A stretch of 42,955 nucleotides of DNA from Nitrospirota bacterium. Its GTDB lineage: Bacteria > Nitrospirota > Leptospirillia > Leptospirillales > Leptospirillaceae. This document shows, piece after piece, positions 1-19,815 of this stretch. Numbering within the stretch: position 1 is the stretch's first letter; each line of letters starts with the position of its first letter. Under the pieces are notes generated by a model. It saw only the letters and a list, made by a program, of their open reading frames with translations, made no database searches and had not been told where the DNA came from. Made by a program: the position numbers and the translations under genes. Location of the stretch: the NCBI GenBank assembly GCA_021828375.1, contig JAKARS010000003.1, positions 1 to 42,955 on the forward strand, in the 5' to 3' direction.

Positions 1-430
1 TCCAAGAAGCACATTCCTCATGCCATGTCCAGGGAGACCGGGAGAGGCGGGCAGACGCCCGACACACCTTCCGGATCTGGGCTGGTCCAGGCCTTGATCT
101 GATCTGTGATCAGGCGGGTTTATGGCCAGTTCAAGAGTGGTGAAGGTCCGGAGAGAGCGGGGGACCGCCGGATTCCGGGAGGGCAGGGCTCAAGACGGAA
201 CGGTCAGGAACTCCACAATGCCCGAAATATCTTAGCAGAGCCCCGTCGTTGGTTCAAGGAACGCCGTGGCGGCAGTTTGAGACATCCTCCCGGGATGATT
301 TTGCTTTAAGTTGTTCTTTGGAAGGAGATTACAAGAAAGTCAAGGGAGTATTTCCGGCAGGGACCTTCAGAAACGATGGGGGGCGGCAGGAGGGGGCCCC
401 CCGCACCCCGGAGGTATCGCGGTCGATGGG
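1..430. other. Left-edge stretch with no supported gene
   Basis: I find no convincing complete gene here. Frame 1 on the plus strand is open from the window edge to a TGA at 100-102 and could be the last 33 codons of a gene that begins outside, but its composition is not persuasive. On the minus strand an ATG at 21 opens a frame that leaves the window after seven codons (MRNVLLG), so a divergent gene could start there; it has no clear Shine-Dalgarno. The G/C-rich run near 378-402 could fold into a hairpin downstream of the DUF2892 gene but lacks a T-tract. Confidence 0.4.
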
Positions 431-631
431 TCAGGAGTCGTGGCGCTTCGTGGGACAGGTGTTGATTCCCAAAAGGGCATAGAGACCGCAGAACCCAAAG
501 ATCCCTGTGGCCAACGGGAGAAGCCCTATCCAGCCCCACGGTGTCTTGGGGCCCACATAGACGAGCGAGATGAGCACCACTCCCAGCAGAACCCGGACCA
601 CCCGGTCAAGGGTTCCTTCATTGACTTTCAT
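431..631 (-). CDS. DUF2892 (YgaP-like) small inner membrane protein
   Basis: A 66-residue protein with two hydrophobic segments (about 10-27 and 34-55). It opens with the family's pattern NEGTLDRVVRVLLG and ends with the signature GFCGLYALLGINTC, in which the two Cys flank the short second segment. This is the DUF2892 transmembrane module also found at the C-terminus of E. coli YgaP. Its function is unknown; it often sits beside rhodanese or sulfur genes, but no such neighbour is visible here. I chose the ATG at 631 because AAGGAGGA lies about 5 bases upstream; the longer in-frame reading has no support. The gene lies 109 bases downstream of nth on the same strand and may be read from its own promoter. 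Confidence 0.85.
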   Translation of the reverse strand: MKVNEGTLDRVVRVLLGVVLISLVYVGPKTPWGWIGLLPLATGIFGFCGLYALLGINTCPTKRHDS

Positions 632-740
632 GGATTCCTCCTTAATTTGTCCGGAGACAGAGAACGCTCTCCGAAAGACTCCCTGAAAAGGGGAGAAGCA
701 AGGGGACGAGAGATCCTCTCCCGCCTTCTTCTCTCTTTGA

Positions 741-1427
741 TTATACTCCCCCGGCCTCCCTCCGCAAGGGAGCGGGAGAGAAGGTGGGAAAAGCGGGGCA
801 GAGATCTGTGCAGGGGCATTTCCCGCAGAGGGGCCGACGGGCCAGGCAGACCCGTCGCCCGTGCAGGAGAAGACGGGACGCGGCGATGCCCCAGTCCTTC
901 TCCGGAATGAGTTTGGAAAGATCCCGCTCAACTCTCTCCGGATCATCGGACTCGGTCAGCCCAAGCCTCTTTGAGACTCTCCCCACATGGGTGTCAACGA
1001 AGATGGCCGGCCGGGAAAAGCCGTGGAAGAGAACGACACTGGCTGTCTTTCGTCCGACGCCGGGAAGGGTCACGAGCTCTTCCATGGTTCCGGGGACGAC
1101 CCCCTGGTATCGGGTGGCGAGAACCCGGGCGAGCTCCTTCACATGTTGGGCCTTCCTGCGGAAAAATCCGGTGGGGCGGAGAAGTGTTTCGAGCTCGGAA
1201 AGGCTGGCCTCTGCCAGTGCGGCCGGGGTGGAAAATCGTGCAAAGAGCTTGGGAGTGACACGATTGACCGTCAGGTCGGTGGTCTGGGCGGAAAGAACCG
1301 TGGCGACAAGGAGTTCGAAGGGGTTGCGGAAGGCGAGCTCGATCCGGGGGTCCGGGATCGTCGACTCCAGCCGGGAGAGGATGTTTTTGAGACGGTCTTT
1401 TTTTTGTGTCAGGGATTCTTCTTTCAA
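741..1427 (-). CDS. nth: Endonuclease III (DNA glycosylase/AP lyase)
   Basis: Base-excision-repair glycosylase/AP lyase for oxidised pyrimidines. With the start used here (228 aa) the helix-hairpin-helix LPGVGRKTA is at 121-129 with catalytic Lys127. The catalytic Asp is D145 in FVDTHVGR. The C-terminal [4Fe-4S] loop is C194-x6-C201-x2-C204-x5-C210. All key residues of the Nth family are present and the length is normal (E. coli Nth is 211 aa). The start is taken as TTG at 1427, which overlaps the TGA of the upstream glucoamylase gene as TTGA, giving the N-terminus MKEESLTQKKDRL. An ATG at 1493 would add 22 residues that only mirror the other gene. The overlap implies translational coupling with the GH15 gene. 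Confidence 0.93.
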   Translation of the reverse strand: MKEESLTQKKDRLKNILSRLESTIPDPRIELAFRNPFELLVATVLSAQTTDLTVNRVTPKLFARFSTPAALAEASLSELETLLRPTGFFRRKAQHVKELARVLATRYQGVVPGTMEELVTLPGVGRKTASVVLFHGFSRPAIFVDTHVGRVSKRLGLTESDDPERVERDLSKLIPEKDWGIAASRLLLHGRRVCLARRPLCGKCPCTDLCPAFPTFSPAPLRREAGGV

Positions 1428-3388
1428 TGTCCGTCGTCCCAGGGGTGTTTTTCCGGGGAGGACTGGCAGAGCTCCACCATGGTGAGAACCCATTCAGCAT
1501 GGCTCCAGGTCAGGGGGGAGGCCGAACGGACCTCCAGTGTCCGGGGGTGATACTGCTCCGCCAGCATCCCCGAGCCCGCGGCCCTTTCCACGACCCAGTC
1601 GAGGAGGGCGCGGACAGTCTCCGAGTGCAGAGGATCGGGAACGGTCCGAATCAGCCATCGCGCCTTCCAGAGGGTCGCGATAATCCAGGGATTTCCTGGA
1701 TGCGCGGGATTTTCCCGATAGTAGGAGTCGTTGGCATACCGGATGACCCCTCCTTCGGGAAGGGTGAGTCGGCGAAAGAGATGCTCCATGGCCGGCGCCA
1801 GCCGGGTGTCCTGGGGAGAGAAGATGTCGAGCCAGAAGAGCGCCGACAGGCTGGAGTCCGGGACGGGGTCAGGGCTGAGGGAGCCGTTGGCTTCGAGCTT
1901 GAGCCCCCGAAGGAATGTTTGGGGCCCGGGATCGAAGAGCCGTTCGGCCAGAGACTCTTTCATGGATCCGGCAATTTTCTCGAACTCCTGGGCAAAGGAG
2001 GTGTCTCCGAATCTTCGGGCCATGCGGGAGGCCGAAAAAAGTCCCGCAATGACCGTGGCCACGGTGAAGGTCCAGATTCCCGCCCGTTCCTCCCACAAGT
2101 CGTAGGAGGGGCAAGGAAGGCCGCTGGCGGAGCTCCGGAAGCCTGCAAGAAAGTGGGCGGAGGGGAGGACGAAGGAGCGGTAGAGCCCGTAGAGGGAGTC
2201 GATGTCGCGGTATCGTTCGATATGGCGCTCGAAGGCCCAGATGGACAAGGCTGTCTCGTCCTCCTGAATCGGGAACTCAGGGGTCCCGGGAACCCCTGAC
2301 GGATGCCAGGAGGAGCCGGGAGAGAGGGAGGGGTGATATTTGTGGAGCAGGAAGCCCTCCCGGGAGAGAAGCCCCGGGAGAAGATCGTAGAAGCGACGGG
2401 TCAGATCGCCGAATCCGGCCATGTCGAGGGCGTGGGCGATGATGGCTCCGTCCCGGGGCCAGAGGTAGGAGTAGGTGTCCCGGGACAGGGAGAGGGAGTC
2501 CGAGTCCACGGCGGCCACGATCGCCCCGTTGGCGCTCATGTGGTTTTTCAGGATGAAGAGGCTGTGCCGCATCAGTTTGAGATAGCTTTCCGGAAGACGG
2601 TTGGCACAGGTCACCGGAGTGTCGAGCCAGAAGTCATAGAAGCTTCGGCATCGGGAGAGGGAGAGGGACGGGGGGGAGGCGACCACCCGGGACAGCAAAT
2701 CGGTGGCCCGCCCATAAGAGGAGGCGGCCACAAGAACGGAGGTCCTTTCCACGACGCCTCCCGGAGGCACGTTCAGCCAAATGGCATAGACCGAGTCCAC
2801 CGCTCCCTGGGCGATGGGGTTGCCTCCCAGCTCTCCGTCCTCGGCATCGCGCCAGGTCCCTTCGCGATGGGCATGGCGGGTTCCGCAGGCGTAGCCATCG
2901 ATCCGGGGCCTGTCGCCGTCAAGGGTCGTCATGAGGAAGTAAAAGTGGTCCTTGTAGTGAAGCATCGCGCCATGGTCCGAAAGGAACGAAGCCGTATTCC
3001 CGATGTCGGAGTTGGCAATGTCCATGTCGAAGTGAAAAAAGACCCGGAGCGGGATTTCCGTCTCCGAGGCGTTCTCGACCCGGAGATGGCGATAGAGAAT
3101 GTCGTCGTTGGTGTCGACCCAGTCTGTCAGAAGAAACGAGAGGGAGGGCAGGGAGCGGAGCACAATCCGGGTGCGGACAACGGGCGCCCGGGATTCGTAT
3201 TCCCGCGAGAGAACATGTTCGGGGGTGATCCACTCGAATCCGGCAACCGAGGAGAGGCCGATTCGGCAGATGCGGCCCCCCACATGGCTCTCCTTTCCGA
3301 CATGGGGATAGGTCAGCTCCCGGATGGAGCCCGAGGGATCGAAGGAGACAAAGAGTCGTCCGTTTGTAAGGGGATGTTCCCTGGCCAA
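1424..3388 (-). CDS. Glucoamylase-type glycoside hydrolase family 15 protein
   Basis: A 654-residue GH15 enzyme, the glucoamylase / trehalase / glucodextranase family, which removes glucose from the ends of alpha-glucans or splits trehalose by inversion. It has the N-terminal beta-sandwich typical of prokaryotic members (1 to about 250) and a C-terminal (alpha/alpha)6 barrel. Landmarks are YLWPRDG (about 308-314), the acid Glu region YDLWEER (E433/E434) and the base Glu in LAEQYHP (E611). No signal peptide is seen, so it is probably cytosolic and may act on stored glycogen or trehalose. I chose TTG at 3388: AGGAG lies 5 bases before it and the resulting MAREHPLTNGRLFVSFD start resembles the family's conserved opening. 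A TTG at 3469 would add 27 unlike residues. It is coupled to nth by a TTGA overlap. Substrate cannot be told from sequence alone. Confidence 0.9.
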   Translation of the reverse strand: MAREHPLTNGRLFVSFDPSGSIRELTYPHVGKESHVGGRICRIGLSSVAGFEWITPEHVLSREYESRAPVVRTRIVLRSLPSLSFLLTDWVDTNDDILYRHLRVENASETEIPLRVFFHFDMDIANSDIGNTASFLSDHGAMLHYKDHFYFLMTTLDGDRPRIDGYACGTRHAHREGTWRDAEDGELGGNPIAQGAVDSVYAIWLNVPPGGVVERTSVLVAASSYGRATDLLSRVVASPPSLSLSRCRSFYDFWLDTPVTCANRLPESYLKLMRHSLFILKNHMSANGAIVAAVDSDSLSLSRDTYSYLWPRDGAIIAHALDMAGFGDLTRRFYDLLPGLLSREGFLLHKYHPSLSPGSSWHPSGVPGTPEFPIQEDETALSIWAFERHIERYRDIDSLYGLYRSFVLPSAHFLAGFRSSASGLPCPSYDLWEERAGIWTFTVATVIAGLFSASRMARRFGDTSFAQEFEKIAGSMKESLAERLFDPGPQTFLRGLKLEANGSLSPDPVPDSSLSALFWLDIFSPQDTRLAPAMEHLFRRLTLPEGGVIRYANDSYYRENPAHPGNPWIIATLWKARWLIRTVPDPLHSETVRALLDWVVERAAGSGMLAEQYHPRTLEVRSASPLTWSHAEWVLTMVELCQSSPEKHPWDDGH

Positions 3389-9159: not shown

Positions 9160-10182
9160 CTAGAAGCCGAATTCGGAGAGGAGCTGGTCCACCGCACCCT
9201 GATCAATATCTCCGGTTGCTCCGACCCCTTTCAATGTCTCTGTCGGGGAGGCGGCCGATTTTGTGTCGGAGCCCTTTGGCGAAGCCCCTTCGACGGGTGT
9301 CGCGACGGGTTCGTCGGGGGACTCTTTCGGGGAAGCCTGGTTAGTCTCGATAAGAATCTGGACGAGACGGGACTCCAGGTCCCGAAGATGTCCCCCGATG
9401 AGCTTGATGTTTTGCCCCACGAGATCCTGAAAGGCCATGGCTTCGAATCCATGCATGATCCTCTCGTCGGCAGAGGAGAGGATCTCTTCGATTTTTGCCT
9501 TCTGGTCGGACTTCTTTGACTGGCCGTCGGCAAGAATCTTCCGGATCGCCTCGTGTTCCTCCAGGAGGGACTCCAGGGTATTCATCAGCTTATGGGCGGC
9601 ATCTTCCGTCATCTGGCTGATGATCTCGAGACCGTGGGAGGTCTCCGGGAGCTTGCCTTCCATGAATCGAAGGGAGTCCACCAGAGAGGCGGAAAGGGAG
9701 AGGACGCGCTGAATGTCTCTGGCTGTTTGTCCCACTTGCTGAATCAGTGTCGCGGAGGAGTCTCGTCCATCGCCCGGGTTCTGTGGGGGGACGCTTGCGG
9801 GGGCTGATGGGGAGGCTGTCCAGCCATGGGCTTCCCGAAAGACGGGGACATCAAGAACCCATGCGTCAGTCCCTTCGATTGTTCGAAGACGGGAGAGAAA
9901 GGAGAGCTCGGGGTGTGGGGATCCTTCCCCGGTGCTGTCGAAGATGCGGAGGATCCGTCCAACCCGAGGAACGGCTATGATCGCTTCCCGGCAGGAAGAG
10001 AGGGAGATTCCCTTCAGATGGCCAAGGTGTTCAGGGATCGGAAGATCGAACCATTCCTGCGGATGGCAGAGCATGGCCATCTTCTCCGCAGGAAAGTCTT
10101 TAATGGACTCGATCTTCCTGATTTCCGTCATGCGGATTCCCAGGTCGATGCCCTTGGCCAGGGGAAATGTCATGATCTGCAT
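9160..10182 (-). CDS. cheZ: CheZ-type CheY-P phosphatase with N-terminal extension
   Basis: A 340-residue protein whose residues from about 140 on are CheZ: a long helical hairpin with the catalytic motif AFQDLVGQNIKLI (D253, Q257), followed by an acidic/Pro linker and the terminal CheY-binding peptide VDQLLSEFGF, much like E. coli CheZ 'VDDLLDSLGF'. CheZ removes the phosphate from CheY and so resets flagellar rotation. The first 120 residues are an additional region unlike E. coli CheZ (214 aa), with alternating hydrophobic segments (GISLSSCREAIIAVPRVGRILRI) that look like a small beta-containing domain; I do not recognise it. ATG at 10182 is preceded by GGAAGGAAG. It heads the run cheZ, lexA-like, membrane protein, SNF2 and is the only CheZ in view; the chemoreceptor gene lies just upstream. 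Confidence 0.85.
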   Translation of the reverse strand: MQIMTFPLAKGIDLGIRMTEIRKIESIKDFPAEKMAMLCHPQEWFDLPIPEHLGHLKGISLSSCREAIIAVPRVGRILRIFDSTGEGSPHPELSFLSRLRTIEGTDAWVLDVPVFREAHGWTASPSAPASVPPQNPGDGRDSSATLIQQVGQTARDIQRVLSLSASLVDSLRFMEGKLPETSHGLEIISQMTEDAAHKLMNTLESLLEEHEAIRKILADGQSKKSDQKAKIEEILSSADERIMHGFEAMAFQDLVGQNIKLIGGHLRDLESRLVQILIETNQASPKESPDEPVATPVEGASPKGSDTKSAASPTETLKGVGATGDIDQGAVDQLLSEFGF

Positions 10183-10356: not shown

Positions 10357-11454
10357 TCAGGGTTTGCCAAGGCGGTCGAGCTGCATGAGAACCTCCATGC
10401 TGGCCTTGTCCATGGCCTGGAGCGACTCCACGGCACGGTCGAGGTTCCCAGAAACGAAATGGGTGAGCGCCTCGAGGCCGTATTTGTGGACCGCTTCATG
10501 AGGGGCTTCAAGCTCACGGAACCCGGACTTTCCCGAAAGCTTCCGCCCGTCTCCGTCATAGTACCACTTGCCGAGACGGCAGTTGCGATGGCTGGCAAAG
10601 CTTTCGGGCTTCTTGTCGGAAAGTCCGAAGAGGACGAGGTAGACCTCGAACTTGAATACAAGGTGGTCCATCTTGACGACTTCAATGAATCCGCCGAGAG
10701 CCGAGCTTTCGATCGTGCTTTCCATGTGGCGGAAGGAGGAGACCATTCCCTCCATGCTCTGAGAGGCTCCGGCTCCCGCTGCGGAAAGGATTCCGGACTG
10801 TTCGGAGAGGGCGTCCATCGCGACCTTGGCGGATTGGGTGGCGTTCTGGATGGCGGTGACCAGAGAGGAGATCTCCTGTGTGGCCGTGGAGGTGCGGGAG
10901 GCCAGCTTCCTGACTTCGTCGGCGACGACGGCAAAGCCGCGACCCTGCTCCCCGGCCCGGGCAGACTCGATGGCGGCATTGAGGGCCAGAAGGTTGGTCT
11001 GATCGGCAATCTCCCGGATGGCGTTGACGATGGCTCCGATCTGCCCGGCCCGCTCCGAGAGCCCCTCGACCTCCCGGGCCGCCGTCTGGGAGGCCTGGGA
11101 GAGTCGGGTCATGTTTTCCGAGATCCCGTTCACCGTTTGGGAGGCCTGAAGGGCCACACGGTCCGTTTCCGCCATGGTGGCCTTTTCCGTGGACAGAACC
11201 TCGGAAAGGGAGACAAGCGAGCTTCGAACGCTGAAGATCGACTCTCCGAAGTCTTTGACGTGGGAGAGAATCCGTCGGGTGAACTCCACCGTCGCCCGTG
11301 TCCGCTCCACCTCCTGGCGGGCCATCTCGGCCTCGCGCTCGGCCTGGGAGGCGCGAGCGGCCAGCTCGGAATTCATGGGGCTGTCTCCGGAGCGTATCAG
11401 CGGTTCAGAAGACTGTTCCCGAGCCGGTGCCGGATGTCTGTTGAAGAGACCCAT
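10357..11454 (-). CDS. Soluble methyl-accepting chemotaxis protein with CZB zinc domain
   Basis: A 365-residue cytoplasmic chemoreceptor: there is no transmembrane segment. A short N-terminal tail and coiled coil (about 30-100) lead into the MCP signalling hairpin, whose tip is [21 protein letters not shown] (about 148-168). At the C-terminus is a chemoreceptor zinc-binding (CZB) domain: DHLVFK (H264), [11 protein letters not shown] (H289, C292) and PHEAVH (H319/H323), the 3His/1Cys pattern. CZB receptors have been linked to zinc, hypochlorite and energy-related taxis in other bacteria. I prefer ATG at 11454 (AAGGA with 8-base spacing); the in-frame ATG at 11463 has AAAGG directly abutting it. 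Probably monocistronic, with cheZ next downstream after a hairpin. Confidence 0.92.
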
Positions 11455-11533
11455 TGTCTTCATCCTTTCTCGATGGTTTTTTTCTGGACAACGCCATGAA
11501 ATCCGCCTTGCCAGCGATAGAGTCTTGCCAAAA

Positions 11534-11611: not shown

Positions 11612-12034
11612 CTAGTGCGGGGACAATCTCTGGATTGTCCCCTTTTGGCAGGAGAGGAAGGAGAGGGAGTGAACCTTGATCATATAGGAGTTTTCTCCCG
11701 CCTTCAGTCGGACCTCTCCCTCGATCGGGCACATGGTGGTCGGAGCTGACCTCAGGTGGTAGGCTCCGGGGGAAAGGTCGTAGGAAAACCGACCGTCGGT
11801 GCGTGTCAGAAACTCAATCTCGGTTCCCGGGCGACTCTTGTCCGAGAGAAAAAGGGCGGCCCGGGAGACCGGGTGGCCTTTCCAGAGCATGACTCCCTCA
11901 AAGCGGGCTTTCGAGGGGGGAGGAGAGGGAGTGTGGGAGACTGATTGACAGGAGAGGGGCAAGAGAAGAAGGGCTCCTGCAAGCATTCGGAAAAGGGACG
12001 GGGAGGGTCGAAGGGAGTGTCGGTTCGTCAGCAT
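11612..12034 (-). CDS. Predicted lipoprotein with carboxypeptidase-regulatory-like domain
   Basis: A 140-residue exported lipoprotein. Residues 1-29 form a signal peptide with basic start, hydrophobic core and lipobox LPLSC (C29). A Ser/Pro linker (30-41) precedes a small beta-sandwich of the kind seen in carboxypeptidase regulatory-like / transthyretin-like domains: [56 protein letters not shown]. Two more Cys are at 102 and 129. The ATG overlaps the MNIO gene's stop by one base (TGATG), so the two are translated together; the pair may act in one process. I do not know what it binds; substrate or anchoring partner of the MNIO enzyme is only a guess. Confidence 0.75.
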
Positions 12035-13413
12035 CAGGGATCTCCATTGTAAAGGTGTTGGGCATGAAGGAGCGACTGGGCCTCCCGATGCCGGGTCTCC
12101 CGCAGCGAGAGGGGAATCTCAGGGTGTGTTTTCGCCAGATGGTCGATCCAGTTTCCCGCCCTTCGGATCTTGATCTCGAGAAAGTCTTCGCCGGGCCGGT
12201 TTTCATGGGGTGCCCGGTTGAAATAGTCCACAAAGGAGGCGCGGACATCGACTCCGGATCCCCTGAGAAGCGCGAGTGTTTCCGGGAAGAGTTCTTCCAT
12301 GTTGCCGCCAAACTCCCAGATTTCCTGGCGATACAGATGTTGGCTATAGGGAGAGGGGCGTTCTCCGGAAAGATCCCGGGCGAGATCGCGGTAGCCTTCA
12401 CGGACCCGATCCCGGTCGGCGGATGAGAGGGGGGGGCCGGAAGGGAGTGCCGGGGGAAGGGGAAAGCCTCCCGGCTTGGCATGATGTCTGACAATGTCAC
12501 GAAAACGGGCGAATTCCTTTGCGGCCTGTCGGCTCCCCTTGTTGTCGACCTCGAGGGCCACTCCCTGAAGTGCGGGAAGGGGAAGCCGGGAGAGTGCCGC
12601 CTCGAGAAGGTCAAAAAGGGCCTCCGGCAATGGGCTGGAGTGATCATCGACGGGCCAGGAGTGGCCGTCGAGAGAAAGGAATTGCAGGCCTCCGGCATGG
12701 ATCTCGACGACCCTTTCCAGGGGAAATCCTCGAAGCCAGGCAAGAATGGAGGGAGTGTCGACGGGGCACCCTGAAGCGGCAAGATAGGTCAGGCAATGTC
12801 CGAGGTCAAGACCGATGGCAAGTGGCGTTCCCTGGGTGAGGGTCCTGAAAAAATCTCCGAGATCCATCTCTCCCGGAGGATGGGGGGGAAAGGGGGGAGT
12901 CTCGACCAGAAGAAGTCGTCCCTCCATGGCCTGTGAGAGAGTCAGTGCCCCCTCCCGGGCGACCCGGGCCCCTTCGGGGGTCAGAAGGGGGGGGGCATAG
13001 AGACCAAAGTCAAACCCTTCCATGGATTTCTGGGCACATTCGTGGATCATCCAGGGGGACCGGAGAGCCTCCATGTGGCGACAGGCCCGCCGCTCCTCCT
13101 CCCTGAAATCCGGATCGGTCGAATAGCTTGGCTGGGTATACCACAGGCAATCCCCATGATAGGTCAGGGGAAGGGTCGGAGGAAGCTGCCCCCGGAGCTC
13201 CCGAAGGTCGACGGTCCTCCCCCGGAAGATCTCGAGATAGTCCGGGGGCGATTCTTCCAGATGCGCGATGAGCTCGGCAACGGGAGGAAAGTAGAGATCG
13301 GTGGAGAGTCCTGCAAGGGGCCGGTCGCCGGGGGCGATCAAGGGCACGACATCAGTCTCCGGAGTCAGGGGCATGACGGAGGTCTCATCCTGGGGAGGTG
13401 CCGGGGGGCCCAT
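12034..13413 (-). CDS. MNIO (DUF692) family multinuclear iron oxidase with C-terminal partner-like domain
   Basis: A 459-residue protein. Residues about 30-315 form the DUF692 TIM barrel, the family of MbnB, TglH and BufB that modify Cys in ribosomal peptides with multi-iron sites. Likely ligands seen: YHGDCLW (H86), IHE (H124, E125), VET (E171), GLDLGHCLTY (D203, H206), VEIHAGG (H239), WPVDDHSS (D257, H258) and LEVDN (E288). Residues 330-459 form an additional segment, SQHLYRQEIWEFGGNMEELFP, then VDYFNRAP and AGNWIDHL, then LRETRHREAQSLLHA. This resembles the usually separate DUF2063/BufC-type partner ('YRNNV..L...FP', 'YF..HP', 'G..F..FL', 'L.R.EWA'). No precursor peptide gene was recognised next to it. 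The start at ATG 13413 has only GGGGGA close by and is less sure. It is divergent from the TetR operon and coupled to the lipoprotein. Confidence 0.8.
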   Translation of the reverse strand: MGPPAPPQDETSVMPLTPETDVVPLIAPGDRPLAGLSTDLYFPPVAELIAHLEESPPDYLEIFRGRTVDLRELRGQLPPTLPLTYHGDCLWYTQPSYSTDPDFREEERRACRHMEALRSPWMIHECAQKSMEGFDFGLYAPPLLTPEGARVAREGALTLSQAMEGRLLLVETPPFPPHPPGEMDLGDFFRTLTQGTPLAIGLDLGHCLTYLAASGCPVDTPSILAWLRGFPLERVVEIHAGGLQFLSLDGHSWPVDDHSSPLPEALFDLLEAALSRLPLPALQGVALEVDNKGSRQAAKEFARFRDIVRHHAKPGGFPLPPALPSGPPLSSADRDRVREGYRDLARDLSGERPSPYSQHLYRQEIWEFGGNMEELFPETLALLRGSGVDVRASFVDYFNRAPHENRPGEDFLEIKIRRAGNWIDHLAKTHPEIPLSLRETRHREAQSLLHAQHLYNGDP

Positions 13414-13566: not shown

Positions 13567-13575
13567 GGGGTGAAT

Positions 13576-14313
13576 ATGGCGAGTCCAGCCGATGGGAAAA
13601 AAGAGGGGAAGGTGATCCATGAGGGAAGCTCCGACCCTCTGGAAAAGTCATCCCAACGAAAGCGGGAGATCCTCGAGGCCGCCATGGTGTGTTTTTCCGA
13701 GGAGGGTTATTTTCAGACCACCAACCGGAAGATTGCCCGCAAGGCGGGAATTACGGAGGGGCTGATCTACCATTACTTCCCCTGCAAGAAGGCCCTTCTT
13801 CAGGAAATCATCGAGGAGAAGTTCCGCCATGACCGCTCCCCGGCGCAGCGGTGCTACACCCGCTGGGAGGCGAGATTCGAGATCTCCCCCCCGACCCGGG
13901 AGACCTTCCGGGACTTTCTTTTCGATCTCGGCCGGGCCACCTTTGAAGGCCTGGACAAGGATCGGGATGTCCTTCGCATCCTCCTGTCGGAATATCGACT
14001 CCTCGATGAAGGCCAGGAGCCCCTGTTCCCCCGCCTTGTGATGGAACGTTCGATGAACCGCTTTTCCCGCCTTCTCGCGCTGTATCTTGCGGCAGAAAGC
14101 CTTCCGGACTCCTCCACGGCGATGAAGGACTCGTTTTTCATCGGTCCGATCGTCTCCATCTTCCTTTTTCAGGATCTCCTTCAGGGCAACAAGGTCCGCA
14201 CTCTCGACCGGGAGCTTTTTCTGTCGACTCTCGTCGATCACTTCATGGCCGGGATCGCTGCGATGCCGGTGGGAAAACAGGATAAAAAATCAGGGAAGGA
14301 TTCTTCAAGATGA
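13576..14313 (+). CDS. TetR-family transcriptional regulator of the efflux operon
   Basis: A 245-residue TetR/AcrR repressor. The DNA-binding helix-turn-helix is at about 28-75: REILEAAMVCFSEEGYFQTTNRKIARKAGITEGLIYHYFPCKKALL (shown here in pieces as REILEAAMVCF, TTNRKIARKAGI and GLIYHYF). The rest is a helical ligand-binding domain too variable to name a ligand. ATG at 13576 has AAGGGG five bases upstream; a GTG at 13570 is possible but its spacing is poor. It is the first gene of the operon, and its TGA overlaps the cytochrome start (ATGA). A perfect palindrome covering its own promoter implies self-repression relieved by a compound that the pump probably exports. Confidence 0.92.
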   Translation: MASPADGKKEGKVIHEGSSDPLEKSSQRKREILEAAMVCFSEEGYFQTTNRKIARKAGITEGLIYHYFPCKKALLQEIIEEKFRHDRSPAQRCYTRWEARFEISPPTRETFRDFLFDLGRATFEGLDKDRDVLRILLSEYRLLDEGQEPLFPRLVMERSMNRFSRLLALYLAAESLPDSSTAMKDSFFIGPIVSIFLFQDLLQGNKVRTLDRELFLSTLVDHFMAGIAAMPVGKQDKKSGKDSSR

Positions 14314-14906
14314 GAAAAATGCGTCAGGCGCTCGTGGGGATCCTGCTTCTTCTCCTGGCAGGGGGAGGGGTTGTTCTCGAGGCGGTCCATGCCCGGGCCG
14401 ACTCCGTCATGCACCGGTATGTCGGAGTGGAGACCTGCGAGGTTTGCCACTCGGCCAAGAGAATCGGCGACCAGTTCGATGCCTGGGCCGGAAGTCCCCA
14501 TGCCCGCGCCTATGCCGACCTGACGACCTCCCAGGCTCGCGCCATTGCCGATCGCCTTCATGTGGCCGATCCCACCCGCGATGGACGCTGCCTCTCCTGC
14601 CATGTGACCGCGTATGGCAAACCTCTTCCGGAAGTTCTCTCGACCTTCCGAAGAACAGATGGGGTCCAGTGCGAATCCTGTCACGGTCCCGGCGAGGATT
14701 ATGCCCACTTTTCGGTCATGATTTCCCCGAAAAAATCAAAAAGGGCAGGAGTCGTCATTCCTGACGAGGCGACCTGCAAGACCTGTCACAACCCGAGTTC
14801 TCCCACCTATAAAGGGTTCGACTACCATGCGGCCCTACGGATGATTGCCCATCCTGTTCCAGAAGAAACAAAGCGGGAAACTCTTGAAATGGGAGACGAA
14901 AAATGA
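14310..14906 (+). CDS. Tetrahaem c-type cytochrome (c554 family), exported
   Basis: A 198-residue protein with an N-terminal signal or anchor (hydrophobic 8-25, AHARADS near 27-32 as possible cleavage zone) and four CxxCH haem sites: CEVCH 43-47, CLSCH 94-98, CESCH 121-125 and CKTCH 156-160. The opening YVGVETCEVCH followed by WAGSPHARAYADL is typical of the cytochrome c554 family; extra His such as H64, H133 and H173 can serve as distal ligands. It would work in the periplasm as an electron carrier. It is locked into the efflux operon: ATGA overlaps with tetR before it and the HlyD gene after it. A redox role in handling the exported compound, or in sensing damage, is inference; c554 proteins otherwise serve respiratory electron transfer. 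Confidence 0.9.
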   Translation: MRKMRQALVGILLLLLAGGGVVLEAVHARADSVMHRYVGVETCEVCHSAKRIGDQFDAWAGSPHARAYADLTTSQARAIADRLHVADPTRDGRCLSCHVTAYGKPLPEVLSTFRRTDGVQCESCHGPGEDYAHFSVMISPKKSKRAGVVIPDEATCKTCHNPSSPTYKGFDYHAALRMIAHPVPEETKRETLEMGDEK

Positions 14907-15868
14907 GCGGTGTTCAGGCAGGGAAGCCCCCTGAGGCCGATTCAGGCCGAAGCAGGAAGCGAGGGATCCTCATCGGCGTGGCGGGGCTTCTGGCTACGGC
15001 CGTCATCGCCCTTCTCTACATGAGATACAACGAGTTTTATGTCTCGACCGAGGACTCCATGGTGGACGGGGACATTGTCATGGTCTCCGCGAATGCCCGA
15101 GGGAGGGTCATGACCCTCCCCGTCAATATGGGCGATCCCGTTCACAAGGGAGATCTTCTGGCCCGTATCGATACCACGGGTTTCGGGGCCCTTGAGTCCA
15201 TCGGGCAGCGCAATGTCTCTGCCTTTGGCGACCTGGCCCGGACAAAGGCCCAGGAGGTCTCGCTCTCGGTGCGTCTGGCGAATGCCCGAAGGGATCTGGC
15301 CCGGGGGGAGGCCCTGAGAAAGGGCGGCTTCATTACGGATTCCGATCTCGACCATCTCCGGACGGTGGTGGACGATCTCAATGCCCAGCTTGCGGAGATC
15401 CGGAAGCTGGCCTTCGTCAACCGCACCGCGTTGGAGACCACCGAGTCCCACCCCCTCAACTACACCATCCATTCCCCCCTCGACGGACAGGTGGCGGAAC
15501 GTATCGTCCAGGTGGGACAGGTCGTCTCCCGGGGGCAGGCCGTCGTCTCTCTAGTCGACCCGAAGGACACCTGGGTGACGGCCAAGGTCAAGGAGACCCG
15601 GATGGGCCATGTGCGGGTGGGGCAGAAGGTCGACATCACCATCGACGCCTATCCCGGACGGAAGTTCCATGGACATGTCTTCCAGATCCTTCCGACCTCG
15701 GCGGCGGCCATCTCCCTTCTCCCCCCGGAGAATGCCTCCGGCACCTTCGTCAAGGTGACCCAGCGGGTTCCGGTGAGGATCTCCATTGACGATGCCAAGG
15801 ATGTCGTCCTGCGTCCGGGGCTTTCAACGGAAATCCGTATCCACATCCGGGACGGTTCTCCGTGGTGA
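14903..15868 (+). CDS. HlyD/EmrA-type membrane fusion protein of tripartite efflux pump
   Basis: A 321-residue periplasmic adaptor. One N-terminal transmembrane helix (21-41) is followed by a biotinyl-lipoyl-like half (MVSANARGRVMTLPVNMGDPVHKGDLLARID), a helical hairpin with Ala/Arg-rich heptads (about 95-160), the second lipoyl half (SPLDGQVAERIVQVGQVV) and a beta-barrel domain near KETRMGHVRVGQKV. This is the EmrA class, which links an MFS transporter to a TolC channel; the partner genes follow at once. It starts at ATG 14903 overlapping the cytochrome stop (ATGA) and ends overlapping the transporter start. Confidence 0.94.
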   Translation: MSGVQAGKPPEADSGRSRKRGILIGVAGLLATAVIALLYMRYNEFYVSTEDSMVDGDIVMVSANARGRVMTLPVNMGDPVHKGDLLARIDTTGFGALESIGQRNVSAFGDLARTKAQEVSLSVRLANARRDLARGEALRKGGFITDSDLDHLRTVVDDLNAQLAEIRKLAFVNRTALETTESHPLNYTIHSPLDGQVAERIVQVGQVVSRGQAVVSLVDPKDTWVTAKVKETRMGHVRVGQKVDITIDAYPGRKFHGHVFQILPTSAAAISLLPPENASGTFVKVTQRVPVRISIDDAKDVVLRPGLSTEIRIHIRDGSPW

Positions 15869-17472
15869 CCCCCGAGTCCGGAAGCCTGATGGGGCACTCC
15901 CCCCACTATCGCTGGTGGGCCCTGGGAGTGGTCATGCTCTCTCTCTTCCTTCCGGTTCTCGATACGACCATTGTGAATGTGGCCCTCCCCTACATGATCG
16001 GGAGCCTCGATACCAACCAGGACGAAGTCCGGTGGGTCATCACCGCCTATTCCATGGCCTTTGCGGTGAGTACGCTGGCGAGTGCCTGGCTGCGGACCGT
16101 CTTCGGGATCAAGAACCTCTACCTTGGCTCCATCGTGCTCTTTGTGGCGTCCTCCTTTTTTGCCGGGATCTCGCCCAACCTGAACCTGATGATTGTTTTC
16201 CGGGTCCTTCAGGCGGTGGGGGGAGGGATCATGATGCCCTTGGGCTTCACGATCATCACGGAGGCCTTCCCGGCTCCGGAGCGCCCCAAGGCCTTTGGCT
16301 TCTTCGGCATCGTGGTGGTGCTGGCTCCCACCATCGGTCCGATCCTGGGGGGCTGGCTCGTCGACAACATGAACTGGCGGGATGTCTTTTTCATCAACGT
16401 TCCCTTTGGATTTCTGAGCTTCTTCTTTACGGTGTTCATTCTGAAGAAGGACCGCAGCCACACGGTCGTTCCCTTCGATTATGCGGGATTCATCTCCCTG
16501 GGGACGGCCCTTTCCTTCCTGCTTGTCGGACTCACCGAAGGGGAGCGCTGGGGCTGGACGGCCTTTTTTGTCTACGAATGCTGGGCCGTGACCTCCGTCG
16601 CCTTCTGGATCTATGTCATCACCGCCTTTACGGTGAAGCATCCCCTGATCGATCTTTCCATCTTCCGGGATCTGGACTTTGTGCTCATCATGGTGGCCAA
16701 CTTCTTTCGGGCCATCGGCCTTTTCGGTCGAATGTTCCTGCTCCCCCTCTTTGTCCAGACCTTCAATGCCTTCACGGCCACCGATGCCGGTCTCGTTCTC
16801 CTTCCCTCCTCCCTCATGGCCGGGATTGCCATGCCGGTTCTTGGAGCCGTCTCCGCCAAGGGGTCCGACAGCTTCAAGAGGGGGCTCCTGGTGGCAGGAT
16901 TTCTGATGCTGGCCTTCTCCCAGTTTCTGTACGCCTTTCTCATGGGAGTTCCGTCGATAGGCCAGATTATCGTGGCGCAGCTTGTCTTCGGTCTCTCGAT
17001 GGGGATGCTCAACGCGCTTCTCTCCTCAATCCCCCAGACCCTGGTGGCTCCCCGCCACATCGGTCTGGCCTCGAGCCTCCAGAGCAACATGCTTCAGATC
17101 GGAGGGGCGCTGGGGGTGGCGGTCCTGGGAAATATCCTCGACCATCAGGAGGCGGATTTCTACTCCCAGTACCAGTCGAATGTGACCCACCACGCCTATT
17201 TTTACCAGAAGGTCGTCGCGTTTCTCTCCCAGTCGGCTCAGCATGGCCTTCCCACGGCCGATCCGGCCGCACGGACCGGGGCCATGGTGATCGGCCTTGC
17301 CCAGACGCAGGCGGCCATCTCTGCCTACAATGAGACCTTTATCGTTGCGGGCCTCATGGCCCTTCTGGGGATTCCGATGATCCTTCTCATGAAGAAGCTA
17401 TCTCATCGCCACGATCCGTCCCAGGGATCCCTTTCCGGAAAACCCGAAGTTGTGCATGGAGGATTCGAGTGA
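15862..17472 (+). CDS. DHA2-family (EmrB-like) MFS drug/proton antiporter
   Basis: A 536-residue, 14-helix major facilitator of the DHA2 group. The first helix ends in LDTTIVNVALPYM, the group's motif D1, and helix 5 carries GPILGGWLVD (motif C of drug-proton antiporters). EmrB-type pumps push hydrophobic toxins or uncouplers out through EmrA and TolC; the actual substrate cannot be read from the sequence. Two adjacent GTG codons (15862 and 15865) precede the mature part; 15865 gives a GTGA overlap with the adaptor stop and either could be the start, and an ATG ten codons on is less likely. Overlaps the TolC gene by GTGA at the end. Confidence 0.94.
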   Translation: MVTPESGSLMGHSPHYRWWALGVVMLSLFLPVLDTTIVNVALPYMIGSLDTNQDEVRWVITAYSMAFAVSTLASAWLRTVFGIKNLYLGSIVLFVASSFFAGISPNLNLMIVFRVLQAVGGGIMMPLGFTIITEAFPAPERPKAFGFFGIVVVLAPTIGPILGGWLVDNMNWRDVFFINVPFGFLSFFFTVFILKKDRSHTVVPFDYAGFISLGTALSFLLVGLTEGERWGWTAFFVYECWAVTSVAFWIYVITAFTVKHPLIDLSIFRDLDFVLIMVANFFRAIGLFGRMFLLPLFVQTFNAFTATDAGLVLLPSSLMAGIAMPVLGAVSAKGSDSFKRGLLVAGFLMLAFSQFLYAFLMGVPSIGQIIVAQLVFGLSMGMLNALLSSIPQTLVAPRHIGLASSLQSNMLQIGGALGVAVLGNILDHQEADFYSQYQSNVTHHAYFYQKVVAFLSQSAQHGLPTADPAARTGAMVIGLAQTQAAISAYNETFIVAGLMALLGIPMILLMKKLSHRHDPSQGSLSGKPEVVHGGFE

Positions 17473-18839
17473 GACGTTCGTTTGTGTCTGCCCCCTGTGT
17501 CATCGCCTTTTTGGCCCTGTTGCTCCCGTCGGCCCATGCCGGTCAGTTTTCCGATCCGGAAACGGCCACGGATATGACGGTCATCGCCCCCGGCGGACAG
17601 TCCATCACCTTGGGCAATGCCGTCAGAGAGGCCCTTCTTCGTCGCCCGACCCTCAAGGCGGCGGAACAGAGCGTCCTTCTCTCCAAGGCCCAGATGGGGG
17701 CCTCCCGTTCGGGGTACTTGCCCACTCTTCAAGCCTCCTATTCCGACACGGTGGGAAACAGCATCTTCGGGTACTTTCTCATCCCGGGGTATGAATATGC
17801 GAACTACAACCTTCTGACGGTGGCCCTGACCCAGACCGTCTGGGACTTCGGCCGGGTCCATTCCCAGATGCGGCAGAGCCGGCATCAGCTGGGCGCGGCC
17901 GAGGCCCTGAACCGCCGGGAGGCCCAGACGGTGATCCGGGACGTGGAAGCGGCCTATTACGATCTTCTGAAGGCCCAGCATCGGGTTCTTTCGGCCCGCC
18001 AGAGCGTCGTGGATGCCTCGTCCCACCTGGCCGAGGCCCGGGCCCGACTCTCGGCCGGGGTGGGGCTCAGGCTCGATGTGACCCAGGCCAAGGTCAATCT
18101 CGAATCGGCCCGCCTCGACCTCATTCACGAGGAGACCCTCCGCCGGAAGGCCCAGGTGGATCTTGGGCGGGCGATCGGGTTTCGAAAAAAACGTCCCTTC
18201 GTGGCCGTCTCTCCCGCAGAGCCGGAAAGGATTCCTTCCTTTCCCGATGGCCCGGCTCTCGACCGCCTGATCACCTCCCATCCCGAGATCCTGGCCGATA
18301 CCGAAAATGTCCGACAGAAGAAGGCGGCCCTCGATGCGGCCAAGGATCAGAACTATCCGACGATCACCGGCAATGCCCAGTATTACCTGGCCCAGATCTC
18401 CGTTCCCCTCTTCGGCTCCCCCACCACCCCCTTTTCGACTGTCAACGTGGGAGGGGTCCTGAATATCCCGATTTTCTCGGGGGGATTGATGACAAGCCAG
18501 ATTCATGAAGCCCGGGCCGACATGCGGCGGACGATGCACCAGGCGGAAGACGACCGCCTTCGGATCCTGGCTCTGATCCGGGATGCGGCCCTCGATGTGC
18601 AGGAAAATCAGGAACGCCTTCGGGAGTCGGAGACGGCCCTGGAAAATGCCGAAGAAAACGACCGCCAGGTCGAGGCGGCCTACCGGGCCGGAACGGCCCA
18701 TTCCGTCGATGCCATCGACGCGGAGACGGCCCTTCGCCGGGCGCGGGTCGACGTGGATTCCGCCCGTTTCGACCTGATGAGCTCCATTGTGGCCTATCGC
18801 TACGCGCTGGGCACGCTCACCTCACCGGGCGCTCCCTGA
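17469..18839 (+). CDS. TolC-type outer membrane efflux channel
   Basis: A 456-residue outer membrane factor. The signal peptide covers 1-24 (ending PSAHA). Two repeats follow, each with long alpha-helical tunnel segments and a beta-strand pair, for example LGNAVREALLRRPTLKAAEQ, AALDAAKDQNYPTITGNAQYY and the closing VDAIDAETALRRARVDVDSARFD region. It completes a three-part pump with the EmrA-like adaptor and EmrB-like transporter. It starts at GTG 17469 within the transporter stop (GTGA) and ends with TGATG shared with rnhA. Confidence 0.93.
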   Translation: MRRSFVSAPCVIAFLALLLPSAHAGQFSDPETATDMTVIAPGGQSITLGNAVREALLRRPTLKAAEQSVLLSKAQMGASRSGYLPTLQASYSDTVGNSIFGYFLIPGYEYANYNLLTVALTQTVWDFGRVHSQMRQSRHQLGAAEALNRREAQTVIRDVEAAYYDLLKAQHRVLSARQSVVDASSHLAEARARLSAGVGLRLDVTQAKVNLESARLDLIHEETLRRKAQVDLGRAIGFRKKRPFVAVSPAEPERIPSFPDGPALDRLITSHPEILADTENVRQKKAALDAAKDQNYPTITGNAQYYLAQISVPLFGSPTTPFSTVNVGGVLNIPIFSGGLMTSQIHEARADMRRTMHQAEDDRLRILALIRDAALDVQENQERLRESETALENAEENDRQVEAAYRAGTAHSVDAIDAETALRRARVDVDSARFDLMSSIVAYRYALGTLTSPGAP

Positions 18840-19410: not shown

Positions 19411-19454
19411 AAGAAAAAGAGGGCCAAGGTCATCGACCTTGGCCCTCTTTTTTT
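19411..19454. terminator. Bidirectional intrinsic terminator
   Basis: A perfect 13-bp stem (GAGGGCCAAGGTC, 19419-19431, with its complement 19435-19447) and a tiny ATC loop are followed by TTTTTTT on the plus strand and by TTTTTC on the minus strand. It ends the tetR-to-rnhA operon and also the convergent histidine-rich gene, whose stop codon lies in its T-tract. Confidence 0.93.
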
Positions 19455-19767
19455 AGTTCTTCTTGTCGTGGTGCTTTTTGTGGTGCTTCATGTGGTGGTG
19501 CCGCTTGTGGTGCTTCATGTGGTGAGGATAGCAACGATGGTGGCGCTTCCAGTAGCGGGTGTGGTGATTGCAGCGATGGTGCTTCCAGTGGCGCTTGTGG
19601 TGGGCCTTCTTGTGGGCCTTGTGCTTGGCCGGTGCCGGGGTTGTTGCCGGAGCCGTTGCCGCCGCGGGGGCTGACGCATCGGCCGCAAAGGAGACGGGAG
19701 CCGCGACCAGGGAAAGGGAAAAGACCACGGCTGCGAGAGAGCCGACAATGGATGCCAGTTTTTTCAT
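19453..19767 (-). CDS. Secreted histidine-rich protein, probable metal binder
   Basis: A 104-residue protein with a clear Sec signal peptide (1 to about 29, KKLASIVGSLAAVVFSLSLVAAP then SFAAD), an Ala/Pro/Thr linker (30-47) and a tail of 56 residues containing 22 His plus many Lys and Arg, with two Cys (66 and 79). HH pairs recur every three to five residues. No enzyme domain is present. Such tails bind Ni, Cu, Zn or Co in other bacteria; buffering of periplasmic metal or protons is inference. ATG at 19767 has AAGGAG five bases upstream; the in-frame start at 19803 would spoil the signal peptide. It is a single-gene unit with its own promoter candidate and terminator. Confidence 0.85.
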   Translation of the reverse strand: MKKLASIVGSLAAVVFSLSLVAAPVSFAADASAPAAATAPATTPAPAKHKAHKKAHHKRHWKHHRCNHHTRYWKRHHRCYPHHMKHHKRHHHMKHHKKHHDKKN

Positions 19768-19815
19768 TGAAACTCCTTGAAAAGGGGTGGGGTATGAGAT
19801 CACACGGCTAGCAAT

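What the first reader, a model, noticed from the sequence alone, without database searches (positions are those of the whole stretch)
12034..13413. MNIO (DUF692) enzyme apparently fused to its partner-like domain
The first about 315 residues show the DUF692 barrel with a full set of candidate iron ligands (H86, H124, E125, E171, D203, H206, H239, D257, H258, E288). The last 130 residues carry the pattern 'LYRQEIWE..G.N.EELFP', 'YFNRAP', 'AGNWIDHL' and 'LRETRHREAQ', which resembles the DUF2063/BufC-type proteins that in bufferin and methanobactin loci are separate genes and bring the precursor to the enzyme. A single-chain version without a recognisable precursor next to it would suggest a different substrate.
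Basis: partly seen in the sequence, partly recalled or inferred. Interest (0 to 1): 0.68.

Follow-up and report, generated by a model that had tools for sequence, protein, structure and literature searches.

The report
Single-chain MNIO enzyme with partner-like domain
This gene encodes an iron enzyme of the MNIO (DUF692) family with an extra helical domain that probably does the job of its usual separate helper protein; the same fusion is kept across leptospirilla and many other Nitrospirota, with two unusual iron-ligand positions and an unknown target.

Summary
In detail: the minus-strand ORF 12034-13413 (459 aa) is a real, conserved gene. Residues about 35-312 are a divergent MNIO barrel; residues 331-459 are a separate all-helical domain. 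The same architecture is in 140 of 396 Nitrospirota genomes sampled, including all 21 of the window's family; in one genome the two halves are separate overlapping genes. Two positions differ from TglH, MbnB and BufB: Glu125 replaces a His and His206 replaces an Asn. Relationship of the C-terminal domain to DUF2063 is only suggestive: an in-register profile alignment, about 1% by shuffles, with no Pfam or Foldseek match. "No recognisable precursor next to it" is doubtful: a gene overlapping the MNIO stop codon encodes a lipoprotein with two invariant cysteines, adjacent in 16 of 19 judgeable genomes of the family. It is absent from other MNIO-bearing families, and its cysteines may simply form a disulfide. 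Natural single-chain MNIOs (MovX, ChrH) and an engineered HvfB-HvfC fusion are known, so this is a new variant of a known kind.

The parts
12034..13413 (-). whole ORF, 459 aa (true start may lie up to about 22 codons further in): divergent MNIO with C-terminal helical domain
12478..13311 (-). residues 35-312: MNIO TIM barrel with invariant H86, E125, E171, D203, H206, H239, D256, H258, E288
   Evidence: Pfam PF05114; Foldseek TglH/MbnB/3bww; conservation; hhalign to BufB 99.3%, E 1.5e-20
13039..13041 (-). codon of Glu125, which occupies the position of His107 of TglH / His105 of the BufB alignment
   Evidence: alignments; invariant in 34 of 34
12796..12798 (-). codon of His206, which occupies the position of Asn187 of TglH / Asn186 of the BufB alignment
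   Evidence: alignments; invariant in 34 of 34
12424..12477 (-). poorly conserved linker, residues 313-330; the split in G272 falls in this region
12037..12423 (-). residues 331-459: C-terminal all-helical partner-like domain
   Evidence: AlphaFold pLDDT 87, pTM 0.77 alone; alignment A2; weak in-register profile match to DUF2063
11612..12034 (-). translationally coupled lipoprotein, 140 aa (lipobox LLPLSC, carboxypeptidase-regulatory/transthyretin-like domain); start codon overlaps the MNIO stop by one base; invariant Cys102 and Cys129; candidate substrate
19453..19803 (-). secreted His-rich protein with invariant CNHH...HHxCYP core (two Cys); second candidate substrate, same strand, about 6 kb upstream; in sister genus g3 it lies about 0.3 kb upstream of the MNIO gene

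Best explanation
The gene encodes a catalytically competent, divergent MNIO that carries its helper domain in the same chain. The barrel binds a multi-iron cluster and uses O2 to oxidise a residue, most likely a cysteine, in a protein or peptide. The C-terminal helical domain packs on the barrel, helps bind the substrate and holds the cluster in its active state, the role that separate partners such as HvfC play; fusion fixes a 1:1 ratio. In leptospirilla the likeliest target encoded nearby is the translationally coupled lipoprotein, modified on its conserved cysteines before Sec export; elsewhere in the phylum the target must be another protein. Shown here: gene, fold, ligand conservation, separate C-terminal domain, operon layout. 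Inferred: iron binding, oxidation chemistry, partner role. Speculative: the lipoprotein as substrate (about 0.2).
For: Pfam, Foldseek and profile-profile evidence for the MNIO fold. Nine ligand positions invariant in 34 homologues. Fusion in all 21 genomes of the window's family and in 140 of 396 Nitrospirota genomes. MNIO and C-terminal domain as two overlapping genes in G272, with an SD-like GGAG before the second ATG. The C-terminal domain aligns in register with DUF2063, about 1% by shuffles. No DUF2063 protein found in the window's genome or in 60 relatives. The lipoprotein gene follows the MNIO gene directly in 16 of 19 judgeable genomes, in 4 of 5 genera, and its two Cys are invariant. 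Precedents: HvfC is needed for the active mixed-valent state and an engineered HvfB-HvfC fusion is highly active (PMC13419390); lipoproteins can be MNIO substrates (PMC12636315).
Against: No biochemical evidence. The C-terminal domain has no Pfam match and no significant structural match and does not match TglI above chance. Ligand substitutions could mean altered or lost chemistry. The lipoprotein is confined to the window's family, while the enzyme is also in other families, and its cysteines could be an ordinary periplasmic disulfide. In genus g3 the lipoprotein gene is not next to the MNIO gene. In family f10 the MNIO gene sits before dus and maf housekeeping genes. The G272 split could be a sequencing frameshift.
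Confidence: 0.6

Rival explanations
1. The enzyme is a housekeeping oxygenase of Nitrospirota that acts on a core cellular protein or a small molecule rather than on a dedicated RiPP-type precursor. The C-terminal domain is a lineage-specific substrate-binding or structural domain unrelated to DUF2063.
For: Present in all 21 sampled genomes of the window's family and in many f10 genomes, in differing gene neighbourhoods: dus/maf in f10, gltBD-like genes in f18, lipoprotein and chemotaxis genes in the window's family. No co-conserved precursor shared across the phylum was found. No DUF2063 match by Pfam or Foldseek. Distinct ligand set.
Against: The characterised MNIOs in the papers read here modify peptides or proteins (PMC12452194, PMC13174530). 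In the window's family a Cys-bearing lipoprotein is translationally coupled. The weak in-register DUF2063 profile match is unexplained.
Confidence: 0.25
2. The protein is no longer an oxidative enzyme: the ligand changes (His to Glu, Asn to His) convert the site to another metal or to a binding or regulatory role, like the inactive MNIO homologue PesX.
For: Two positions that bind iron in TglH are substituted in all members. A pseudo-enzyme MNIO homologue is known in the pes cluster (PMC13060819).
Against: All nine positions hold metal-binding residues and are invariant across a deep family, unlike PesX, which lacks the iron-binding residues.
Confidence: 0.1
3. The enzyme is an active fused MNIO, but the His-rich two-Cys secreted protein, not the lipoprotein, is the substrate in leptospirilla.
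For: Signal peptide, strictly conserved CNHH...HHxCYP core, same strand upstream of the MNIO gene in four genera, only about 0.3 kb away in g3. Exported Cys-bearing metal-binding precursors are typical for MNIOs (PMC12452194).
Against: About 6 kb away in the window with an opposite-strand efflux operon between; weak or absent in genus g5 and in other MNIO-bearing families. Local synteny also covers unrelated genes.
Confidence: 0.1

Closest known systems
BufB/HvfB with BufC/HvfC (bufferin/oxazolin MNIO with separate DUF2063-RRE partner)
   Same: MNIO barrel (hhalign 99.3%, E 1.5e-20 to five BufB); MNIO-then-partner order; exported Cys-bearing proteins as substrates in the known systems
   Different: Here enzyme and helper-like domain are one chain; no Pfam DUF2063 and no room for a full RRE; His to Glu and Asn to His at two ligand positions; no DUF2282-type precursor; 23 bits against the 310-bit BufB cut-off
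MovX and ChrH (MNIOs listed as exceptions to the need for a PME partner)
   Same: Single-chain MNIO with an extra domain; [quoted passage not shown]
   Different: The extra domain here is all-helical, not an RRE winged helix; ChrH's extra domain is described there only as of unknown function and was not compared; the window protein itself has no ChrH-model hit
Engineered HvfB-HvfC fusion (PMC13419390)
   Same: C-terminus of the MNIO joined to its partner in one chain, with high activity
   Different: Man-made; the partner is a DUF2063 plus RRE protein; the present case is natural
PME-type 2 partner proteins (PMC12452194)
   Same: Short helical DUF2063-like proteins after MNIO genes that lack the Pfam DUF2063 signature and often a full RRE; length fits
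   Different: Separate genes; no PME-type 2 sequence was available for direct comparison; membership not shown
ApyH (aminopyruvatide MNIO)
   Same: Best NCBIfam hit of the window protein (46.2 bits, E 3.1e-12)
   Different: Far under the 400-bit equivalog cut-off; ApyH uses a separate partner ApyI

Membership tests
MNIO / DUF692 (PF05114) | curated Pfam score | tested here: met
   27.4 bits, cut-off 25; relatives up to about 69 bits
MNIO / DUF692 (PF05114) | TIM barrel with MNIO fold | tested here: met
   AlphaFold model; nine best PDB matches are MNIOs
MNIO / DUF692 (PF05114) | canonical ligands as in TglH: H71, H107, E151, D184, N187, H216, D229, H231, E258 (PMC10880893) | tested here: inconclusive
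   Seven of nine identical; the H107 position is Glu125 and the N187 position is His206 here, both still metal-binding residues
MNIO / DUF692 (PF05114) | binds 2-3 Fe and oxidises a peptide or protein with O2 | not testable with these tools
   needs purified protein
DUF2063 (PF09836, PME-type 1) | Pfam model match | tested here: not met
   no PF09836 match in 33 members even at E 10
DUF2063 (PF09836, PME-type 1) | profile-profile similarity to true BufC-type partners | tested here: inconclusive
   score 19.0 in register, P 0.04; 2/200 and 3/250 shuffles reach it; HH probability only about 1%
DUF2063 (PF09836, PME-type 1) | full RRE-type domain after DUF2063 | tested here: not met
   only about 129 residues, all helical, no strands
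PME-type 2 | DUF2063-like helical fold by structure, encoded after MNIO | tested here: inconclusive
   all-helical, and a separate gene in G272, but no PDB structural match and no PME-type 2 sequences at hand
MbnC / TglI | sequence or structural similarity | tested here: not met
   not among PDB hits; TglI fragment not above shuffles. MbnC was covered only through the PDB searches
bufferin gene cluster | DUF2282/EGKCG-type precursor and DUF2063 partner beside the MNIO | tested here: not met
   neighbour survey; no DUF2063 in own genome, which is 72% complete

The most novel reading that the evidence does not exclude
A previously undescribed single-chain MNIO clade, conserved across leptospirilla and other Nitrospirota families, with an altered iron site (Glu for His, His for Asn) and a built-in helper domain, that performs a new oxidation on a housekeeping protein target; in leptospirilla on a lipoprotein cysteine.
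Probability: 0.25. Interest if true: 0.75.

Novelty: new variant of a known kind. Interest (0 to 1): 0.52.

Why it matters
How the MNIO iron site and its helper protein divide the work is an open question: HvfC is needed for the active mixed-valent state, but enzyme and partner associate weakly. A natural single chain gives a stoichiometric system to test this. The invariant Glu-for-His and His-for-Asn replacements offer a natural probe of which iron sites matter. None of the papers searched here mentions a Nitrospirota fusion; it would be easy to overlook because it has no obvious RiPP precursor gene.

Tried and rejected
Secreted two-Cys protein of the f10 MNIO-dus-maf-secreted block: rejected as a general substrate because f18 genomes without the fused MNIO (genus g38, e.g. 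G077, G089, G172) also carry it. His-rich protein as class-wide substrate: rejected, convincing only in the window's family. Eyeballed likeness of the C-terminal domain to TglI: not above shuffled sequence. Foldseek of the C-terminal domain alone: best hit E 2.0, unrelated. DUF2063 search in viral contigs to enlarge the comparison: none confirmed. Profile A1 against the PDB gave only chance hits; the wider profile A3 recovered 3bww and TglH. The strongest other PF05114 matches in the phylum are canonical and separate from this family. The split in G272 could not be confirmed in its family: of three genomes one has no match and one has only a canonical BufB-type MNIO.

Full report
What is there. 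It has one close full-length family in other genomes: 14 relatives in the genome collection, 41-88% identical, all Nitrospirae or Leptospirillum metagenome bins. A profile of these finds the protein in 140 of 396 Nitrospirota genomes: all 21 of the window's family (f1) and many genomes of f10, with members in f18, f24 and f39. Nearly all are single copy; the second matches are mostly pieces of broken genes. The C-terminal domain on its own finds the same kind of genomes (104 of 296) and, apart from G272 and gene fragments at contig ends or breaks, only inside this long open frame.

The barrel. PF05114 is matched just above cut-off. The AlphaFold model (pLDDT 86.7) has TglH, MbnB and 3bww as its nine best PDB matches. 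hhalign against five plasmid BufB proteins gives 99.3% and E 1.5e-20. In TglH the irons are bound by His71, His107, Glu151, Asp184, His216 and Glu258, and at the third site by Asp184, Asn187, Asp229 and His231 (PMC10880893). In the alignments the equivalents here are H86, E125, E171, D203, H239, E288, and H206, D256, H258. All are invariant in 34 proteins. Thus the His107 position is Glu and the Asn187 position is His. D257 is variable. Site-3 variation is known elsewhere (PesH, PflD; PMC13060819). I know of no characterised MNIO with Glu at the His107 position, but I could compare only TglH, MbnB, 3bww and BufB; ApyH and others were not tested.

The C-terminal domain. Residues 331-459 fold alone as six or seven helices (pLDDT 87). 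Among 33 members only G40, D80, K85 and E114 (domain numbering) are invariant. The score is 19.0 (P 0.043); shuffled profiles average 12.4, and 2 of 200 reach it. With 51 sequences, 3 of 250 do. This is suggestive, not proof: HH probability is about 1%, Pfam finds no DUF2063, and Foldseek against the PDB has no hit below E 2. TglI, which the DUF2063 profile does find, is not matched by this domain. In G272 the two halves are separate ORFs overlapping by 31 bases, with GGAG four bases before the second ATG, in the MNIO-partner order usual for these systems (PMC12452194). A frameshift error cannot be excluded.

Neighbours and substrate. The MNIO stop and the next start share one base (TGATG). 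That next gene encodes a lipoprotein of 140 aa. Relatives lie directly after the MNIO gene in the window's genus and in g2, g4 and g5; in g3 the gene is elsewhere. Of 21 family genomes, two contigs end too early to judge (G010, G014); of the other 19, 16 have it adjacent and 3 (g3) do not. Two cysteines (C102, C129) are among ten invariant columns; g2-g5 have two tandem domains. A CarboxypepD_reg match in relatives points to a transthyretin-like sandwich, so a disulfide is the plain alternative. Lipoproteins are known MNIO substrates (PMC12636315). The lipoprotein is not found outside the family beyond weak generic hits. A His-rich secreted protein with a strictly kept two-Cys core lies about 6 kb upstream in the window, roughly 1.5-1.8 kb upstream in g2 and g4 and about 0.3 kb in g3. 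In f10 the MNIO gene precedes dus and maf and then a secreted two-Cys protein, but f18 genomes lacking this MNIO also have that protein. So no single substrate shared across the phylum was found.

How it probably works. From HvfBC and MbnBC (PMC13419390): the partner is required for the mixed-valent diiron state; the substrate Cys binds the ferric iron and the ferrous iron activates O2. I infer that this protein does the same with its own C-terminal domain in the role of HvfC. Whether Glu125 changes the redox state, the iron content or the substrate is unknown.

Relation to known systems and novelty. MovX (fused RRE), ChrH (extra domain) and the engineered HvfB-HvfC fusion (PMC13419390), as well as an MNIO-nitroreductase fusion (PMC12452194), show that single-chain MNIOs are not new in kind. 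I found no description of this Nitrospirota family in the papers searched; subscription papers were not covered. Some f10 genomes also carry a canonical MNIO, so this is a separate family. It is best called a new variant of a known kind.

Limits. The window's genome is 72% complete. Other phyla could not be searched with the profile; the one genome-collection scan used peptide patterns from the window protein and reaches close relatives only.

Noticed in passing
window 9160-10182 (-) and 10357-11463 (-): After the lipoprotein come a chemoreceptor with a CZB zinc-binding domain and a protein whose C-terminus carries an FQDLVGQ motif like CheZ (read by eye, not tested); the latter is kept near the MNIO gene in other genera of the family.
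   Followed up: partly
window 13570-18839 (+): Divergent efflux operon: TetR regulator, a multihaem c-type cytochrome (Cytochrome_C554), then what read like HlyD/EmrA-, EmrB- and TolC-type proteins. A cytochrome gene inside an efflux operon is unusual.
   Followed up: partly
window 19453-19803 (-): Secreted His-rich protein with invariant CNHH...HHxCYP core, conserved in the family; looks like a metal-binding protein.
   Followed up: partly
L111 and other plasmid hits: E. coli plasmids, some conjugative, carry bufferin-like operons (DUF2282 - DUF692 - DUF2063-type - DoxX in L111); 59 Escherichia records matched the MNIO query.
   Followed up: no
L047, L049, L052, L053, L056, L061 (family f10): MNIO-dus-maf-secreted protein block: about 220 aa exported protein with no Pfam match and two invariant CG cysteines, adjacent in f10 and present in f18 genomes that lack the fused MNIO.
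   Followed up: yes
L113 (G396) 109-2594 (-): Canonical BufB-type MNIO with DUF2063-like partner, a small secreted Cys-bearing protein and a DoxX-like membrane protein in another Nitrospirota genome (read from ORFs).
   Followed up: partly
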